Of a stretch of 64,000 nt of DNA, positions 1-41,887 are shown piece by piece. The stretch is taken from positions 558,001 through 622,000 of the forward strand of contig NW_002476237.1 of the NCBI RefSeq assembly GCF_000189635.1, written 5' to 3'. The notes below the pieces were generated by a model, which did no database searches, was not told where the DNA came from, and saw only the letters and a list, made by a program, of their open reading frames with translations. The DNA comes from Tetrahymena thermophila SB210. Lineage: Eukaryota; Ciliophora; Oligohymenophorea; Hymenostomatida; Tetrahymenidae. The position numbers were made by a program, and so were the translations under genes. Position 1 is the first letter of the stretch. Every line of letters begins with the position of its first letter.

Positions 1-2
1 AA

Positions 3-330
3 GAAGCCGAAGATAAAAAAAAGTTATAAGAAGCAGAAGAGAGAAAAAAATAATAAGAGGCTGAGGAGAAAAGAAAACAATAAGAAGCAGAAGAGAAAAG
101 AAAATAATAAGAAGCTGAAGATAAAAAAAGATAATAAGAGGCTGAGGAGAAGAAAAAATAATAAGAGGCAGAAGAAAAGAAAAAAATATAAGAAGCTGAA
201 GAATTGAAATTGAAACAACAGGCTGAAGAAAATAAGAAGTTATAAGAGGCATAGGAAAAGCAAAAATAACATGAAGCTGAAGAGAGAAAAAAATAATTAG
301 AGGCTGAGGAAAAAAAGAAGTAATAAGAAA
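3..330 (+). repeat. E/A/K/Q-rich short tandem repeat in the TPR protein
   Basis: Degenerate units of roughly 27-39 nt encode variants of QQEAEEKRK (with TAA/TAG as Gln). They form a charged helical or coiled-coil segment at the visible N-terminus of the TPR protein. Unit boundaries decay downstream of about 330. Confidence 0.75.
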
Positions 331-3300
331 TGGATGACAAAAAAAAGAAGCAAGAAGAAGAGGAATTAAAAAAGAAGTAACAATAGGATGAACAATAAAA
401 ACTCTTAGAAGTTTAAAATAAAAAAATTTAGGATGAAGAAATGAAAAAAAATTAAGAAACTTAAAATGATAAAAATAAATAGCTTAAAAATGAGTAATCT
501 TCTGATAAAAATAATTAAATTGTTGGTATCGAGTTAGATTAAAATGAGAAAAATAAAGGAGAACATAGCTTAAATAAATAAAATATAAAAAATTCAGAAA
601 ATGACAATAAAAAGTAGATTGAATCAAATAATTAAAATACTCAAAATAAATCAATTTCTGCTCAAAATGTTTAATAAAAAGAAAGTTAAAGTAGTGCTGA
701 AGTAAATCAAACTGCTAAAGTTTAAGAAGCTAGTGTAAAATCAGAATCTTAAGAAAATCAAAAAAATAAGAACTAGTTAACCTTATTAAATAAAAATTAA
801 ATAAACGAAGTAAACAGTGAAGAGGAAAAATCTCCCTCTAAATAAATTGTGGCTAATCAAAAGGATTCTAACAAAAATTAATAAAACCTTGAAAATAATA
901 AATAATAAAAGGTTATCAGTAATAGTTAATAAGGTGCTCATGCAGAAGCTTCTTCAAATAAATCAAATAATACTGCTGCTATAATTGAAGTAAATGAAAG
1001 TGGACAAAATATTGATAAAAACCATCAAAAATCTTTATCATAAAAAAACAGTAAAGAAAACCAATAGGAATTATAAAATTAATAATCGTCAGAAAAGAGT
1101 ATCAAGTAATAATCGAGTGATAAAAATATTTAAGAGAGAAGATCTTCTAAAGCAGATTCTAGCAACAAGCAAATTGCTGCTGCTGCTGCAAATGCCTAGC
1201 CTATTCTCACAAATGTAGAGTTAGATAATTAGTAATCATAAGAAATTAAAATTGAATAAGTTGAGTAAAGCAAAACTTCACCACCCCCTCCACCTATCGA
1301 AAATGAAACAGAAAATGATGCAACTCTTGAGAAGAATGAAATCAATAAAAATATAGAAAAAAAGAGGAAGTAAATTCTTAGAAATCACATGAGTATTGAT
1401 GCAAATTATAGCAAATCCATAAATGATAAAACTCCAAGAAGAAATTCACACTCAGACTTAAATCGCTCTAACTTTTCAGAAAAGTCTTAGAAAGAAATTA
1501 TGAACATATAAAAGTTAAAAGAATCATTTATTTCTAAAGAAGAAAAATCTAAAGGAAATAACAAAATGACTCTTGAAGAAATTGAAAATAATAAAGAATA
1601 TGATGAAAAAAACGAGGTTCATGAAGTGAAAGATGGAGACGAAACTATAAATCCTAAAGATCAATCTAAAAATTAAGAATTCTTTGTTGTAAATGGTGAA
1701 AAGCAAGGAGATCAGTTAGTTAAGAAGAAATCAATAAATGATAGCTTGACTCCTAAAAAGAAAAAGAAAGGAGCTAAAGAAAATCTTTTGCCATCAGATT
1801 TTGATCAGTGGACTGAAGAGAAATGCCATCAAATGATATAAGAAAATCCTAAAAGCTACTTAGCTTACTACAGACTAGCATATATTTGCATGCTAAAAGA
1901 ACCTGATGTCGATATTGAAGGAACAAAGTCAAATCTTCTCAAAGTTTAAGAGCTCAATCCAGATTTTAAAATAGAAAAGGTAATAAAAAATAATTTTAAT
2001 TTGTATTCTCAATTTAATAAATTATAATCTTAATAGATTAATATAACGCTAGGAGAAATCTTCGAAATGCAGAAAAACTATGAGCAAGCTCTTGTTCATT
2101 ATAAAAATTTATTAACTGTGACTTAAGACAAGCAAACTTGCTTGCTAAAGATTGCACGTTGCCATTAAAAATTAAAAGTTTATGATTAAGCATAAAAGAA
2201 GTATTCTGAAGCAATTAAAGTGAATACAAAGAATTATCTCCCATATTTAAAGTTGGGATGGATGTAGGTTAAACTCTCTAATATTAAGCATTAAGAAGCC
2301 CTTGAAAAAAATAAATAAATTGATAGTGCAACAAAGACTGATATACAAAATACTCTCAAACAAGGAATAGACAACCTATAAAAAGCACATTCATTAGAGC
2401 CAAACAATGTTGAAATCAACATTAAGTTAGGAGAAGTAAGCATATTTACTAGTTTAATAAAAAAATGATATATTGAATACAATAATTAGGCATATTTAAT
2501 GAATGAAGAAGACAATGAAGGAGCAGATGAAGCTATAAGCTATCTTACTAATGCTCTTAATTTAGATGATAAAAATTATGACTGCCTAATTGGATTGGGA
2601 AAAGCTTATGAAAGGAAAGGTGATTTACAAAAAGCTATTTAATTTTCATAGCTTGCAATTGATCTACCAAATCCAAATCCTAATTTAAATTCCATTTTCT
2701 TCTTGGGAATGCTCTATTTGCAAAACAAAGAAATTAAAAATGCTGAGAAATAATTTAAGAGTGTTTTATGTAAAACTTTTTTTGAATTTTGGTTTTTTAT
2801 TTATTTTTATATTTTTTTCAGCTAAAAATAGTGAGCATGTTGGAGCCCTTATTGAGTATGCCACAACTTTGAGTTTATAAAATAAATATGATAAAGCCAA
2901 AAAATATTTTAGGTAAAATTATTAATTTATTTTGATAAATTGAAATTGAATTTTATTTAATAGACATGCTTTGAAGCTAGACAAGAATAACGTAATTGCC
3001 AATTTGAGGTTGGGTAAAATATATCAGACAAAGCTTAATGATATTGATGGAGCTATATCATGCTATAAAAAGATAATAGAAGTGTAGCCTAAATTTGCAA
3101 AAGCACATTATTAACTTGGTTTAGCTTTATTAGAGAAAAAGGACTATAAAGGAGCTACAGAAGAGTTTAAAGAAACAATTAGAATTAATGAAAGATTTAC
3201 TGGAGCATACAAGGCAATAGGCTTAATTTATTATGAAAATAATAATCCTTCAAATGCTTGCAAATACTATCTAAGAGCTTTAGAATGTGATCCATTTGAT

Positions 3301-4096
3301 ATGGAATCTAAGCTTGGATTAGCTAATTGTTATTATCTAATGGAAAACTTTGATGCTGCCATACAAAATTACGAAGAAATTTCTGGAATAGATTAAAACG
3401 ACGAAATTGAATATAATTTGGCTAACTGTTACTATATGAAAGGAGAAATCAATGAAGCAATCAATCATTACAAAAATGCTCTCAATTTAAAACAAGATAA
3501 ACCTGATTGCTTATATAATTTAGGTATTTAAAAATATTCAGCCATTTTTATTGAATTGAAATATATTCTAATAATTTATAAAGGTAATGCTTACTGCATT
3601 TAAGAAAACTTTAAAGAGGCATTAATTTGCTTTGAAAAGGCGATTCAATATGATCCTTAAAATTCAGCTGCTATGTACAATCTTGCTAACACATACTATG
3701 TCCTTGAGGATCATGAAAAGGCTTCTGACTATTTCGAAAAAGCCATACAATTAGAGCCTAACAATATAGAGTGGCATAATTACATAGGTGGAGTTTATTT
3801 TGGAAGAAATTAATTCAATGAAGCAAGGAGACATTTTGAGTAATCATATAAATTAAGTTCTGATAATATAGATACAAACTACCGTCTTGCTTAACTTAAC
3901 CACTCTGAAGGAAATAACGATGCTGCTTTACATTATGTTAATGTAAGCATTTTACTTTAAAATAAAATATTAAAAATTTCTATTTATTAAAAAACAGTTT
4001 GTAATCTCTAAGCAACCTGAAAATGAAGAAGCAAACTAATTAAAAAGAGAAATAAATGAGCTTTTGAATGAAAGCTAAAGAGAATAAGAGCTATGA
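3..4096 (+). CDS. TPR-repeat protein, 5'-truncated by the window edge
   Basis: Read with TAA/TAG as Gln, the frame is open from base 3 to the TGA at 4094-4096. Exons are 3-2435, 2490-2769, 2822-2912, 2964-3523, 3584-3942 and 3998-4096; they sum to 1,274 codons including the stop, a multiple of three. The first about 110 visible residues are Gln/Glu/Ala/Lys-rich imperfect repeats, followed by a disordered Asn/Gln/Ser/Lys stretch with a PPPPP run near 1284. From about 1800 on the protein consists of tandem tetratricopeptide repeats; typical TPR signatures are ALxxYxxAIxxxPxNxxAxxNLGxxY-like positions, for example AMYNLANTYYVLEDHEKA and AIQLEPNN. TPR arrays are protein-interaction scaffolds, common in ciliary and trafficking complexes. 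The true start lies upstream. No catalytic domain is visible, so the partner and process are unknown. Confidence 0.9.
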
Positions 4097-5148
4097 AAAT
4101 AACTCTCTCTGAACTGATTTTCTCAAGAATTCATTTATTAAAACTATATACAAAAATTAAACTATTTATTATAAAAATAAAACTATTAATTAATAAATAA
4201 ATCACTTATTTGAAATATATTTTGTAAAGTAAATGTGTTTATGATAATAAAATACATTCTAATATTCAATTACTACGAAATTATCATAAAAGCAATTTCT
4301 TTATTGTAATCTTTTGATTCTTTTTTTATGGTCAATATTTAATCAATTTAATTGTATGGATAATCAAGATATATTAATTAAAATTTAATTAGAGTAAGGC
4401 TTATATATTTTTTAACTATTCAGATCATTACAATCATAATCATAATATGATTTTTTAAAACTAAATCCAAAAATACATAAATTTTAAAAAAGAATTTTTC
4501 GAAAAATCCAGAAATATTCTATGAGTTATGAGTGAAAAGTATTTTTTTATTTGAAGTAATATGAAAAAGTAAATTAAACTTTTCAAATATAATTAAAAAT
4601 TTTAATTTGATGCTTTGTTTTATAATTAAATACCACAATTTGCTTCCGATTCTGAAAGGATATTTATAAAATATTATAACAAATGATATTGATATATTAC
4701 TTAAAATTTGTTAAGCTTTTGGTATTTATCAAAATTTAAAAAAAAAAGTAGATTTAATTTAATACTTTTTTTATGAAAATTGATTGCTTTGATGAGATTA
4801 AGATTAATACATCCATACATGCGATTATGTATTCATCTAATAAAAATGTAAAAGAATTTTTTTATTATCAAAATCATTCCCACATGATATTTTTATTGCG
4901 AATAATTAATTGAATATGACTTATTACTTTTCCTATTTCTTTTATTATTTGTTGTAAGATTAGTATAAATTAATCTTTTTTACTTGAATTTATGGTTCTT
5001 CAATAAGCTAATTAAATATTTTATATAAATAAAGTGGAAGAACAAAAGAAAACAAATAAAATACGAATATTATCCAATATTTTACAAAAAACGTAATTAT
5101 TTTTGCTTATTTTTATGTAAATATATTTTATTTCCTTATTTAAGAGCA
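4097..5148. other. Intergenic, AT-rich, no gene seen
   Basis: About 1.05 kb between the TPR gene stop and the start of the mini-exon gene. It is very AT-rich with long A/T runs and no extended TGA-free frame with protein-like composition. It must hold the 3' UTR of the upstream gene and the promoter of the downstream one; no specific element could be recognised. Confidence 0.6.
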
Positions 5149-8100
5149 ATGTAAACATCTAAGAGAACATCTAATTCTATATGCTAACCTCAGTCCAAAG
5201 AAAATATTTTGAATTTCCTTTGGCTTGACAACACTACTGATAATAGTATTGTAATTGAAAAAATATGTGAAAGAAATTTGTGCTCAGCTGAAGAAGCTCA
5301 ATTTTAGCTGAAGGAATATCATAAATTCTTGTACTGCTTGGGTAAAGAGTTCAGACTTAATGAACTTCTTCAAGATTAAATGCTTTTATTCCCATCAGCT
5401 ATAGTAAGATTTTTTCTTAAATAATTTTTGTCAAAAAAATATCATACGCACATATTAAGAGATATTCTTAATTATCATTTGTTTTTTGATTACTAAATAT
5501 ATAGTTTTACTTAACAAATACGTATTTTTTTTTTCAATTACTATTTCTTATGAGTAATTTAGAAAAAACTCGATAAATTGCTAATCTTTGTGCTACAAAA
5601 ATTGTATCAAATTATAAATATTAATTTTTTTTGTTATTAAGATAAGCAGAATTTGGAGAATGCATTAACTCTTCACTATTGAATATCCATCTTTGTGCAG
5701 AGATTTAGGATTTAATTTTATTAGCTTCAATCCTGAGAAAATTTGCTTCTGGTCATAGACTGAAAATTAAATTAATAAATTCAGATCAACTTATGAGAAA
5801 ACTTTGGAATCGTTAAAATAAGAATTCAAAGAAGATTTGAATTAAGAAATTTGGCCAAGCAATTTTGATGATATGGTTAAATAGCATTTACTCTCTTTCC
5901 ATGTTAATTTGACCACTTTCAAAGCCATCGAAAACACAGTCAATAACTTGAATGGAGCTATAAACTTTTCTGAAATGTCTATTTCTGATATTAAGAACAA
6001 AATTATTCCTGAATTAAGAAAAAATCTTCATTAATTTAAGGAAACCAAATTTGAACTCGTTAATTAAGATTCTTAAGATTAACGTACCAAGGAAGTATAT
6101 CAAAAAATGAACAACTTAGTTTTCCCATAAGAAATGGTTTCCCATATTTAAAATGTAAAGTCTTTAATTTATTTATTTACTATTGTTAATATTTTATACT
6201 TTAATAAGGAATATCTTTTAACTCCTGAAAGCACTCAATATCTTATTATGGAATATAAAAAATTCTTCATGATATTTTTAGTCAATAACACATTCTCTTA
6301 AGTTCCTTCTGCCTTTGTAGATGAAGTATGGCATACTCATATCAATTTTGCAAAAATTTATTCCTATTCTTGCAAAGTGTTAACTGGAGGATTTATAAAT
6401 CATGTTCCAGCTACTAATTTAAGAGAAAATGAATAGGAAATAATGAAGGAGGAATTTAATTAAACTATGGAACTCTATGAAAAATTATTTGGTCCAGTCA
6501 ATGAAGAATACTGGCAATTAAAAGGAGAATTCAGAGATGATCAACAAAATTTCTTTTGGATAGATCTATATTCCTTAAACAAGAAATCTTAGGCTGAATC
6601 ATAAAGTAAAATACTTGTAACAAAGGACTACTTAATTTTTTAATTTTACAATTCTTTTAGATTCCCTTAATGTTAAGGTATAAGAAGGCTAAGATTTAGA
6701 TGATTCAATTTCAACATAACCTAATTCAGTTAACTTAGATAGTAATTTTAAAAAATATTTATTACTTTAATTATTTATTTCAAATTACTATTAAGATTAA
6801 AATATTTAATGCACTGATTGTACTAGTGACTGTTTAGCAAGAATTACCTAAACTAAAAGTAATTTATTAATTAATTATTAATTTAAATCTAATAATTTTT
6901 TTTAATTTACAAGATACATAAAATTCTTGTGATGGTTGTGATGGCACTTGTAATGCTAATAGAACAGGAACTGGTACTGGAACAACCTAAAATAACAGTA
7001 ATATTTATATTAGTATAAAATATAACATCTACATAATTTCATATTAGAGCTAAAGAACTCATGTGATGGCTGTGATGGTTCCTGCAATGCTAATGGAACT
7101 GGAACTGGTACTGGAACAACATAAAATAATTGTATTACTTAAATTCAAAAGATATTTAATGTCTTATTCTTTCATTTTTAATTAGAGCTAAAGAATTCAT
7201 GCAATGGATGCGATGGTACTTGTAACGCTAATGGAACATCATAAAATAAAAGTATCATTTAGAAAAATATTCATTAGGATATCTTATTTATAATCTTTAA
7301 AAAGAGTTAAACAACTCATGTAATGGCTGTGATGGAACTTGCAATGCTAACGGAACAGGAACTGGTACTGGAACAACCTAAAATAACAGTATTATTTATT
7401 AGTATAAAGTATAATATCTAAATATTCCTTTACTAGAGTTGAAGAATTCTTGTAATGGATGTGATGGAACTTGTAACGCTAATGGAACTGGTACTGGAGC
7501 AACATAAAATAATTGTATTACTTAAATTCAAATAAAATTAAATGTCTTATTATTTCATTTTTAATTAGAGCTTAAGAACTCCTGCAACGGATGTGATGGT
7601 ACCTGTAATGCTAATGGAACTGGAACAACATAAAATATGAGTATTATTTATAAAAAATTTAAATCCTGTATCATTTATTTATGTTTAATTAGAGTTAAAG
7701 AACTCATGTAATGGATGTGATGGTAGCTGCAATGCTAATGGAACTACATAAAATTGTATCTTTTAAATTCAAAAAAAAATTAAATATCTTAATATTTAAT
7801 CTTTAACTAGAAATAAAAAATTCATGCAATGGATGTAACGGAACTTGTAACGCTAATGGAACTGGTACTGGAGCAACATAAAATAACTGTATTACTTAAA
7901 TTCAAATAAAATTAAATGTCTTAATATTTGATTTTTAATTAGAGCTTAAGAACTCCTGCAATGGGTGTGATGGTACTTGTAATGCTAATGGAACTGGAAC
8001 AACATAAAATAAGGGTATTATTTATAAAAAATTTAAATAATGTATCATTTATTTATGTTTAATTAGAGTTAAAGAAATCATGTAATGGATGTGATGGTAG

Positions 8101-10173
8101 CTGCAATGCTAACGGAACAGGAACTGGTACTGGAATAACATAAAATAATTGTATGATTACACATTCAAAAAAAATTAATTTTATTAATATTAAAACCTTA
8201 ATTAGAGTTAAAGAACTCCTGCAATGGATGTGATGGTACTTGTAACGCTAATGGAACAGGAACTGGTACTGGAACAACTTCAAACAATTGTATTACTTCA
8301 ATTAATATTAAATATTATATTTATTATTTAATTTGTAAATAGAGTTAAAGAACTCATGCAATGGATGTGATGGTACTTGCAACGCCAATGGAACTGGAAC
8401 TGGTACTGGATAAACTCAAAACAAAAGTATTAATTAAACTAATATGAAATATTATAATTGATAATAATTTAACAATTCATAAGATTTAAAAAACTCATGT
8501 GATGGTTGTGATGGTAGTTGTAATGCTAAAGGAACTGGCACTGGAACAACATAAAACAAGAGTAATTACTATTTATTTAAATAGGGAATATTTTATCTTT
8601 TTTTTTAACATTTAATAAGAGTTGAAAAACTCATGCAATGGTTGTGATGGTACTTGCAATGCTAACGGAATAGGAATTGGCCCTGGAACAACTTAAAATA
8701 ATTGTATGATTACACATTCAAAAAAATAAATTTCTTAATATTTAATCTTTAATTAGAGTTAAAGAATTCATGCAGTGGATGTGATGGTACTTGCAATGCT
8801 AATGGAACAGGAACTGAAACTGGAACAACTTAAAATAATAGTATCATTTAAATTCAAAAGAAATTTAATGTCTTATTATTTCATTTTAAATAGAGCTAAA
8901 GAATTCATGCAACGGATGTGATGGAACTTGTAATACTAATGGAACAGGAACAACCTCAAACAAGTGTATTACTTCAATTAACGTTAAATATCATATTTAT
9001 TATTTAATCTATAATTAGAGCAAAAGAACTCTTGTAATGGATGTGATGGTAATTGCAATGCTAATGGAAATGGAACTGGTAATGGTTCTGAATAAACTTA
9101 AAACAAAAGTATTAATTAGATTAGCTCGAAATATTATTTATTTTTATCACTTAACTTCTAATTAGAATTAAAGAACTCATGTGATGGTTGTGATGGTACT
9201 TGTAATGCTAATGGAACTGGTACTGGAACTACCTAAAATAAGTGTATTACTCATATAAACATAATATAAAATCTATATTATTTAATTTTTATTAGAGTTA
9301 AAGAACTCATGCGATGGCTGTGATGGTAATTGCAATGCTAATACAACTGGAACTGGAACAACTTAAAATAAAAGTAAAATATAGAAAAATGTTTATTTTT
9401 GATAATTTACTTTATAATCTTTTATTAGAAAGCAAGAACTCATGCGATGGTTGTGATGGTAATTGTAATGCTAATGGTACTGGATCAACTCAAAATAATA
9501 GTATTTTTATTGATATTAATAAATTTGTTATAAAATGATATTTCAATAGAAAATAAAAGTTCTTGTGTTGGTTGTGATGGTGATTGTTTTGCTAAACAAA
9601 CTTTTGAAAAGAAGGACTAGAGTAATTTATTTTTTTTTACTTAAAAATATAATATTTTAAACATTAAAAAATATTATTTAGAATGGTGCTTTGATTGCTT
9701 AAGCTAGCCAGGAAAAAAATAAAAGAATCAAATTCATTCTAATAAATTGAAGATCTAACAATAATAAAAAATGATCTGTAAAATTAAAATTTTTAGCAAA
9801 AATAATATTAAAATTTTATTCAAAAATTAGAATTGTGTGGAAATTGTTTTGCTATAGATGACAAAGCTTTGAATAGTAAAAAACAATTTTTAAATATCTT
9901 CTAATTTTATTTTAATCTAAATAGGCTCATAATAGAATCTTGCAAAGCTTTTGTGTATTGCAAAACAAAGTAATAATTTTTTTATTTTTTATTTAAATAT
10001 TAAAGTATTTATTTATTAAACAAATCAGATAATCAAGAAGAATAGGAAGATTTTTAAAACAAAAAAAGTAAATAATTATTTTTCATAATTTTAAAACTTA
10101 AAAATATTTAATATAAATTTAAGCTGATATTCTAGAATTGGTTCAAGGAATGAACAAAGTAATTGTTTAGTGA
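5149..10173 (+). CDS. VDEVWHTH-domain protein with about 21 Cys-rich mini-exon repeats
   Basis: A 31-exon model: 5149-5403, 5642-6154, 6209-6605, 6661-6741, 6796-6858, 21 repeat exons from 6914 to 9621, then 9682-9777, 9831-9875, 9925-9969, 10029-10067 and 10124-10173. Exons total exactly 1,075 codons including the TGA, so all 30 introns are mutually consistent. Residues about 260-390 contain VDEVWHTHINFAKIYSYSC and then FINHVPAT, which resembles the core of bacterial and eukaryotic glycine-rich-domain-containing proteins (conserved D-VWH-H). In bacterial relatives this core precedes a Cys/Gly-rich tail, and here it precedes Cys-rich repeats of the form SCDGCDGTCNANG(TG)nTTQN. Each repeat supplies a CxxCxxxC triad, about 65 cysteines in all, suggesting metal binding or disulfides. 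No signal peptide was seen at the chosen Met. Catalytic function is unknown. Confidence 0.88.
6914..9621 (+). repeat. Tandem array of 21 phase-1 mini-exons, one Cys-rich repeat each
   Basis: Repeat exons (63-90 nt): 6914-6997, 7048-7131, 7186-7251, 7305-7388, 7437-7514, 7569-7640, 7693-7755, 7811-7888, 7943-8014, 8067-8150, 8206-8289, 8343-8426, 8484-8561, 8620-8703, 8757-8840, 8894-8965, 9019-9108, 9166-9243, 9296-9373, 9429-9500 and 9550-9621. Each is flanked by introns of about 48-58 nt that begin GTA and end AG, and every exon begins and ends in phase 1, so any exon can be gained, lost or skipped without a frameshift. Lengths differ mostly in steps of 6 nt, i.e. one Gly-Thr dipeptide in the linker after the CxxCxxxC core. 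A diverged first unit (6796-6858) and Cys-containing units after 9682 flank the array. Confidence 0.92.
7437..8150 (+). repeat. Duplicated three-exon block within the array
   Basis: The exon order 78-72-63 nt at 7437-7755 recurs as 78-72-84 nt at 7811-8150, and the intervening introns are nearly identical: intron 7515-7568 matches 7889-7942, and 7641-7692 matches 8015-8066 with only a few differences. Introns normally diverge fast, so this points to a recent unequal-crossover duplication of a three-exon unit. The block includes intron sequence, so the event was at the DNA level. Confidence 0.8.
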
Positions 10174-41425: not shown

Positions 41426-41530
41426 TACTTTCTTAATTAAATATCTAATTTTATCTTAAATAAAAAATTATATGTCTATTTTGAGGTATTTATTGCTACT
41501 AAAATAAAACTAGTGAATATTATAATATTA

Positions 41531-41887
41531 GTGCTAATTTACTTAATTTTAAAAATTTTTTAAGATATTGATCTACTTTCTTTCTACTTAAACAACCTAT
41601 TTTTAAATACTAAAAGCATTTCTTATTTAATAATTTCTTTTTAGTCTTACATTATAATAATTTTAGGTTCAAAAAATTAATAAAATCCGAATGTAAATTA
41701 ATAAAATAAGGCAGTGCTAATTTACATAGTTTTTAAAATTATTAAAGAAATTGATCTACTTTCTTTCTACTTAAACTACATATTTTTAAATTCTAAAAAT
41801 ATTTCTTATTTAATAATTTCTTATTAGTCTTACATAATAATAATTTTTGGTTCAAAAAATTAATAAAATCCGAATTTAAATTAATAT
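41531..41887. repeat. Tandem direct duplication with 183-bp period
   Basis: Copy 1 starts with GTGCTAATTTAC at 41531 and copy 2 with the same at 41714. Both contain the shared string TTGATCTACTTTCTTTCTAC and end at AATAAAATCCGAAT. Copies are about 90% similar by eye over 170 nt. They lie in the 540-nt spacer between the Schlafen-like start (41425) and the TTL-like stop (41967), probably upstream-regulatory or 3' UTR DNA; no frame is shared. Confidence 0.85.

What the first reader, a model, noticed from the sequence alone, without database searches (positions are those of the whole stretch)
6914..9621. 21 tandem symmetric mini-exons, each encoding one CxxCxxxC repeat
Every repeat of a Cys-rich tail sits on its own 63-90 nt exon bounded by phase-1 introns of about 50 nt, giving a 31-exon gene whose exon sum is exactly 1,075 codons. 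All array exons are interchangeable, so alternative skipping could generate tails of many lengths without frameshift, and unequal crossover can change copy number. About 65 cysteines in a regular lattice suggest a metal-binding or disulfide rod. I know of no described ciliate gene built like this.
Basis: partly seen in the sequence, partly recalled or inferred. Interest (0 to 1): 0.88.

Follow-up and report, generated by a model that had tools for sequence, protein, structure and literature searches.

The report
Cysteine-tail gene built from mini-exons
A ciliate gene carries 21 similar small coding pieces in a row, each adding one three-cysteine unit to the tail of a protein whose front end resembles little-studied bacterial proteins, many of which also end in cysteine-rich tails.

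Summary
The window comes from a Tetrahymena-like genome (101 Mb, TAA/TAG read as Gln). Splicing 31 exons between 5149 and 10173 gives 3,225 nt, exactly 1,075 codons with the stop. Exons 6-26 (6914-9621) are 21 copies of one 63-90 nt unit, each phase 1 and a multiple of 3, separated by 48-58 nt GT-AG introns. Coding is well supported: pN/pS is 0.13 in the coding frame against 0.66 and 1.84 in the others (20 copies), and 14 of 20 introns would shift the frame if retained.
Exons 1-3 encode two copies of a GRDP-like 'WHxH' domain related to bacterial proteins. In 36 of 77 complete bacterial relatives the last 60 residues hold at least 4 cysteines, against 12 of 208 control open frames. So domain plus Cys-dotted tail recurs; here the tail is cut into exons.
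Tandem mini-exon arrays are known in Tetrahymena (90-bp, phase-2 LRR exons; PMC6564038); this is a phase-1, Cys-rich variant found at one locus. Combinatorial skipping is possible in frame but unlikely. Metal or thiol binding is inferred, not shown.

The parts
5149..5403 (+). Exon 1: start codon and first part of GRDP-like domain 1
   Evidence: model; residues 1-165 (exons 1-2) match a profile of 8 bacterial domains, E 4e-10, 20-shuffle control
5642..6154 (+). Exon 2: rest of domain 1 (IISRIWRMHQLFTIEY) and linker
6209..6605 (+). Exon 3: GRDP-like domain 2 (PSAFVDEVWHTHINF...CKVLTGGFINHVPA)
   Evidence: tblastn to bacterial plasmids, best E among the 20 listed records 1e-7; hhalign E 1e-19
6661..6741 (+). 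Exon 4: linker, phase 1-1
6796..6858 (+). Exon 5: degenerate repeat CTDCTSDC, phase 1-1
6914..9621 (+). Exons 6-26: 21 tandem CxxCxxxC mini-exons, all phase 1-1; introns 48-58 nt
7423..8096 (+). Duplication with a 374-nt step, 7423-7722 against 7797-8096, 93-94% identical, exons and introns together
9682..9777 (+). Exon 27: KWCFDC..., one further CxxC, phase 1-1
9831..10173 (+). Exons 28-31: LCGNC and Gln/Lys-rich C-terminus, stop TGA

Best explanation
A live protein-coding gene of a Tetrahymena-like ciliate, found at one locus. It encodes a probably soluble protein with two GRDP-like (WHxH) domains and a long flexible tail of 22 Cys-triplet units spaced by Asn/Gly/Thr-rich linkers. Shown on sequence: the gene structure, purifying selection on the repeat, and homology of the domains to bacterial proteins. 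Inferred: the array introns are removed constitutively by intron definition; repeat number grew and changes by unequal exchange or conversion between exon-intron units in the germline; the tail works as a multivalent thiol array, most likely binding soft metal ions or forming thiol cross-links, presented by the WHxH domains, as the Cys-dotted tails of bacterial relatives may be.
For: 31 exons splice to 1,075 codons. pS 0.571, pN 0.072 in the coding frame over 20 copies; minor-base counts by codon position 21/11/74. Six residues, S-C-G-C-G-C, are invariant in 21 of 21 repeats. 0 of 210 exon pairs differ in length by a non-multiple of 3; 132 of 190 intron pairs do. Duplication at 93-94%; intron 10 most resembles introns 13 and 7, and 11 resembles 14. 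Exon 3 finds 60 bacterial plasmid records at E up to 1 (the 20 listed run from 1e-7 to 0.2). hhalign scores 105 and 56 against at most 17.7 and 13.8 in 20 shuffles each. Cys tails in 36 of 77 complete relatives against 12 of 208 control open frames. No strong hydrophobic segment (maximum Kyte-Doolittle mean over 19 residues 1.27).
Against: No transcript or protein data. No metal-binding or redox test. Three thiols per unit is not a standard four-ligand zinc site (recalled). The bacterial tails are Gly/Ser-Cys repeats, not CxxCxxxC, so the likeness of the tails may be convergence. 41 of the 77 complete bacterial relatives fall below 4 cysteines in the last 60 residues. Two of 4 relatives scanned carry a TIGR04222 membrane domain, which the ciliate protein lacks. 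Pfam GRDP-like stays below its cut-off on the ciliate protein and has no match at E up to 1 on the tailed relatives L030-L032. Repeat number may be affected by assembly.
Confidence: 0.6

Rival explanations
1. Splicing-tuned tail: symmetric array exons are skipped in combinations, or in-frame cryptic donors inside the Gly-Thr stretch are used, so one gene makes tails of many lengths.
For: 21 of 21 array exons are phase 1-1. In-phase GTA sites inside 10 of 21 exons were picked by my first naive model and keep the frame.
Against: Introns of 48-58 nt favour intron definition; cassette events are 139 of 1,474 in T. thermophila, with introns averaging 279 bp (PMC3274533). No reads were available here.
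Confidence: 0.1
2. The array is a near-neutral by-product of unequal crossing-over: a minisatellite of exon-intron units tolerated because it stays in frame; the number of cysteines matters little.
For: A visible multi-unit duplication and a Gly-Thr stretch whose length varies, mostly in two-residue steps.
Against: Strong purifying signal in the coding frame; cysteines invariant in 21 of 21, while introns vary in length without regard to frame.
Confidence: 0.15
3. RiPP-like tail: cysteines are modified by an MNIO (DUF692) enzyme to copper-binding groups, as proposed for some TIGR04222 proteins (PMC12452194).
For: 2 of 4 bacterial relatives scanned carry a TIGR04222 domain, a family with Cys-rich tails and partial MNIO linkage.
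Against: No MNIO (PF05114) match in the ciliate genome; the control rang in 2 of 14 known genomes, Caulobacter included. MNIO found in 3 of 35 genomes with Cys-tailed relatives and in 3 of 14 with relatives of 0 or 1 tail cysteine: no link at genome level. Gene neighbourhood was not examined, and some genomes may be incomplete.
Confidence: 0.03
4. Pseudogene or assembly artefact.
For: Single locus, high repeat content; no transcript data.
Against: 31 exons in frame with one stop, at the end; purifying selection; the units differ from each other.
Confidence: 0.04

Closest known systems
[quoted passage not shown] 2019, PMC6564038)
   Same: Tandem arrays of symmetric mini-exons of one phase; growth attributed to unequal crossing-over; same kind of genome.
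   Different: Those exons are exactly 90 bp, phase 2, encode LRRs, and number about 72,000 over 10 species; here 63-90 nt, phase 1, Cys triplets, one locus found.
GRDP-like proteins (Pfam PF07173; Arabidopsis AtGRDP2 with its DUF1399 domain, PMC4299439, passages read; that the two names mean one domain is recalled)
   Same: A PSxxVDxVWHxHI...Y...C...HHxP core shared with bacterial members; a low-complexity C-terminal part.
   Different: Below the Pfam cut-off; two domain copies; the tail is CxxCxxxC repeats; an RNP motif was not looked for.
Bacterial WHxH-domain proteins with Cys/Gly tails, some with TIGR04222
   Same: Homologous N-terminal domain; at least 4 cysteines in the last 60 residues in 36 of 77 complete relatives.
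   Different: Bacterial; TIGR04222 types are membrane proteins (PMC12452194); tail units are mostly CGG- or CGGG-like.
Collagen, elastin and titin-PEVK exon arrays (recalled; one paper search, listed nothing)
   Same: Many small symmetric exons of one phase, each encoding a repeat.
   Different: Animal structural genes, not built on a cysteine repeat of this kind.

Membership tests
Tetrahymena 90-bp LRR exon arrays | Exons exactly 90 bp | tested here: not met
   1 of 21 array exons is 90 nt, range 63-90
Tetrahymena 90-bp LRR exon arrays | Phase-2 introns | tested here: not met
   Array introns are phase 1
Tetrahymena 90-bp LRR exon arrays | LRR coding content | tested here: not met
   No Pfam match to a 175-aa stretch of seven repeats at E up to 10
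GRDP-like PF07173 | Pfam score over the gathering cut-off | tested here: not met
   12.6 bits against 22.7, E 0.23, residues 55-100 of a 420-aa query; no match when exon 3 or the first 163 residues were scanned alone
GRDP-like PF07173 | Homology to proteins that pass for members | tested here: met
   Of 7 bacterial relatives scanned, L033, L034 and L037 pass the Pfam cut-off, L036 scores below it and L030-L032 have no match; a profile of 8 relatives matches exon 3 at E 1e-19 and exons 1-2 at 4e-10
TIGR04222 membrane proteins | TIGR04222 domain | tested here: not met
   No TIGR04222 match in NCBIfam for three segments of the ciliate protein (256, 133 and 175 aa)
MNIO-modified RiPP precursors | MNIO enzyme in the genome | tested here: not met
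   No PF05114 match; control rang in 2 of 14 known genomes
Metallothioneins | Small protein with dense CxC or CC clusters (recalled) | tested here: not met
   1,074 aa; the repeat unit SCxGCxGxC has no CC or CxC
Metallothioneins | Binds Zn, Cd or Cu through thiolates | not testable with these tools
   needs a bench assay

The most novel reading that the evidence does not exclude
A bacterial-type domain-plus-cysteine-tail architecture has been rebuilt in a ciliate with the tail broken into freely exchangeable phase-1 exons, so that thiol (metal) capacity is a dial set by exon number, in the germline and possibly by splicing.
Probability: 0.25. Interest if true: 0.75.

Novelty: new variant of a known kind. 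Interest (0 to 1): 0.52.

Why it matters
It shows that mini-exon arrays in this kind of genome are not confined to LRR genes, and gives a countable case in which exon number sets the number of thiols per protein. It also ties an orphan ciliate gene to a group of little-studied bacterial proteins whose shared design, a WHxH domain with a Cys-dotted tail, has no function that I found in the papers searched.

Tried and rejected
Rejected: reading the spacers as coding (14 of 20 shift the frame, 3 of 20 hold TGA). A first naive donor choice put donors inside the Gly-Thr stretch of 10 exons; replaced by the later GTA donor. A 30-exon model with a 209-nt intron was replaced by 31 exons. RiPP/MNIO modification: no enzyme match in the genome and no genome-level link in bacteria. 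Paralogues: the repeat query gave 20 matches, all in this locus; the exon-3 query gave one, itself; a bacterial domain query found only exon 3; the tail-end query found only this locus. The PF07173 genome search rang nowhere, controls included, so it is uninformative. Of the three pattern hits outside the array (contigs C17, C57, C91) I read only C91: an intronless Cys-rich ORF with no WHxH domain by eye. PDB by sequence: one weak match of exon 3, to 6y3z chain P (named as tubulin-tyrosine ligase PBY1), E 0.005; not followed up. NCBIfam gave one match of the N-terminal segment to a sigma-factor model at 14.7 bits against a cut-off of 306, taken as chance. In the 374-nt duplicates introns look more alike than exons (102 of 106 against 136 of 150 bases for units 10/13 and 11/14; exon and intron 12/15, only partly inside the duplication, were left out); untested and possibly chance. 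The 'mid' segment scored 55 against the bacterial profile, but it holds the first 44 residues of exon 3 and is no clean control. Structure prediction: one job was interrupted, then the tool was off. Paper searches: none held both a GRDP name and a ciliate; none for animal exon arrays with the terms chosen.
Full report
WHERE IT IS. The window is part of a 101.02 Mb genome held in 445 contigs (G000:C269:558001-622000). It is AT-rich (GC 0.16-0.29 in 2-kb steps), and TAA and TAG read as Gln give long open exons. That fits Tetrahymena or a close relative; the species was not identified.

THE OBSERVATION. A scan of 6781-9700 finds 22 CxxCxxxC cores. Twenty-one of them, 6914-9621, coincide with a 21-copy direct-repeat family, and Tandem Repeats Finder reports overlapping arrays over most of the same stretch. 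With AG acceptors and GTA donors each repeat becomes an exon of 63-90 nt, phase 1 at both ends, and the 20 introns between them are 48-58 nt. My own first model missed exon 27 and gave 1,043 codons.

IS IT CODING. In the first 16 whole codons of 20 array copies, pS is 0.571 and pN 0.072 (ratio 0.13); the same stretch read in the other frames gives 0.66 and 1.84. Minor-base counts by codon position are 21, 11 and 74. With all 21 copies pS is 0.54 and pN 0.097. None of 210 exon pairs differ in length by a non-multiple of 3; 132 of 190 intron pairs do. Exon GC is 0.36, intron GC 0.14. This is what spliced, translated exons would give. No transcript was available.

HOW THE ARRAY GREW. A block is duplicated with a 374-nt step (7423-7722 and 7797-8096, 93-94%), introns included. 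Intron 10 is closest to 13 and 7, 11 to 14, 16 to 21 and 15 to 19, so blocks of several units seem to have moved together. This is the unequal-exchange pattern proposed for Tetrahymena LRR arrays (PMC6564038: abstract, section 25 and passages seen). The Gly-Thr stretch inside the exons also varies, mostly in steps of two residues.

WHAT THE PROTEIN IS. Exon 3 finds 60 plasmid records by tblastn at E up to 1. Only 20 were listed, with E from 1e-7 to 0.2, so some of the 60 may be chance; among the listed names are 'glycine-rich domain-containing protein-like' and 'TIGR04222 domain-containing membrane protein'. I fetched 8 of the 60. A profile of those 8 domains matches exon 3 (E 1e-19) and, more weakly, exons 1-2 (E 4e-10). 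The scores are 105 and 56 against at most 17.7 and 13.8 in 20 shuffles each, and at most 14.7 in 6 segments of a neighbouring protein. So the protein has two copies of this domain. Against filing it as GRDP-like, the Pfam model stays below cut-off (12.6 against 22.7 bits) and gives nothing on the shorter pieces. Of the 7 bacterial relatives scanned, 3 pass that cut-off and the three with Cys tails give no match to it. By sequence, the one PDB match of exon 3 is weak (6y3z chain P, E 0.005).

A SHARED DESIGN. Three of the 8 plasmid-borne relatives end in Cys-dotted tails: L030 in GGCGCGC, L031 in a long CGGG run, L032 in Ser-Cys runs. Four are short with no tail, and L035 has a glycine-rich stretch with few cysteines. 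A scan of bacterial genomes with three of these domains found 155 relatives and kept the best 80. Of the 77 with a complete end, 36 have at least 4 cysteines in the last 60 residues and 15 at least 6. Of 208 other open stretches of 180 codons or more in the same loci, 12 and 4 do; these controls are stop-to-stop stretches in six frames, not all of them genes. The sample leans to relatives of the query, two of whose three rows have such tails. The tails differ in pattern from the ciliate's, so shared descent of the tail is not claimed.

FUNCTION. I found no known activity for the domain. For TIGR04222 proteins, Cys-rich tails have been proposed as MNIO substrates, next to copper-binding bufferins (PMC12452194, passages seen). 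I tested that link. There is no MNIO family match in the ciliate genome. MNIO occurs in 3 of 35 genomes with tailed relatives and in 3 of 14 with relatives of 0 or 1 tail cysteine. For this I gave 35 of the 36 tailed loci, 49 genomes were searched, one locus was not held, and gene neighbourhood was not examined. So that chemistry is unlikely here. The protein starts with no evident signal sequence (judged by eye) and has no strong hydrophobic segment, so free thiols or metal thiolates in the cytosol seem more likely than a disulfide rod. This step is inference.

SKIPPING. Any array exon can be dropped in frame. But in T. thermophila cassette events are 139 of 1,474 and involve long introns (mean 279 bp), and the authors infer intron definition as the commonest mode (PMC3274533, passages and section 9 seen). 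With 48-58 nt introns I expect constitutive splicing.

NOVELTY. Tandem symmetric mini-exons in Tetrahymena are known (PMC6564038). This array differs in phase, exon length, encoded unit, copy number in the genome and partner domain. The listings of the paper searches for ciliate exon arrays or such domains showed no description of it; the listings were capped and most subscription papers are not in the library. I rate it a new variant of a known kind.

Noticed in passing
L120 (G000:C91:681192-684215), minus-strand gene near 682692: Intronless ORF of about 130 aa with a Gln/Asn-rich start and a dense Cys tail (..CDCNGCDGSCHNCSCDGGCDLNGCDCPISCL, then stop): another small Cys-tailed protein in the same genome, with no WHxH domain by eye.
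   Followed up: partly
window 1-4150: Gene with a Glu/Lys/Gln-rich coiled-coil-like repeat (27-nt period, 1-329) followed by what look like TPR repeats by eye.
   Followed up: no
window 41530-41886: Two 183-nt direct repeats, 91% alike, that read as two similar stretches of about 61 residues in one minus-strand frame.
   Followed up: partly
window 6914-9243: In-phase GTA donor-like sites lie inside the Gly-Thr stretch of 10 of 21 array exons; their use would shorten the exon without frameshift.
   Followed up: no
G000:C4:387677-427461: A dense series of CxxCxxxC-type DNA matches on one strand (capped listing), perhaps a tandem family of Cys-rich surface proteins.
   Followed up: no
window 6209-6605 (exon 3): Weak PDB sequence match to 6y3z chain P, named as tubulin-tyrosine ligase PBY1, E 0.005; meaning unknown.
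   Followed up: no
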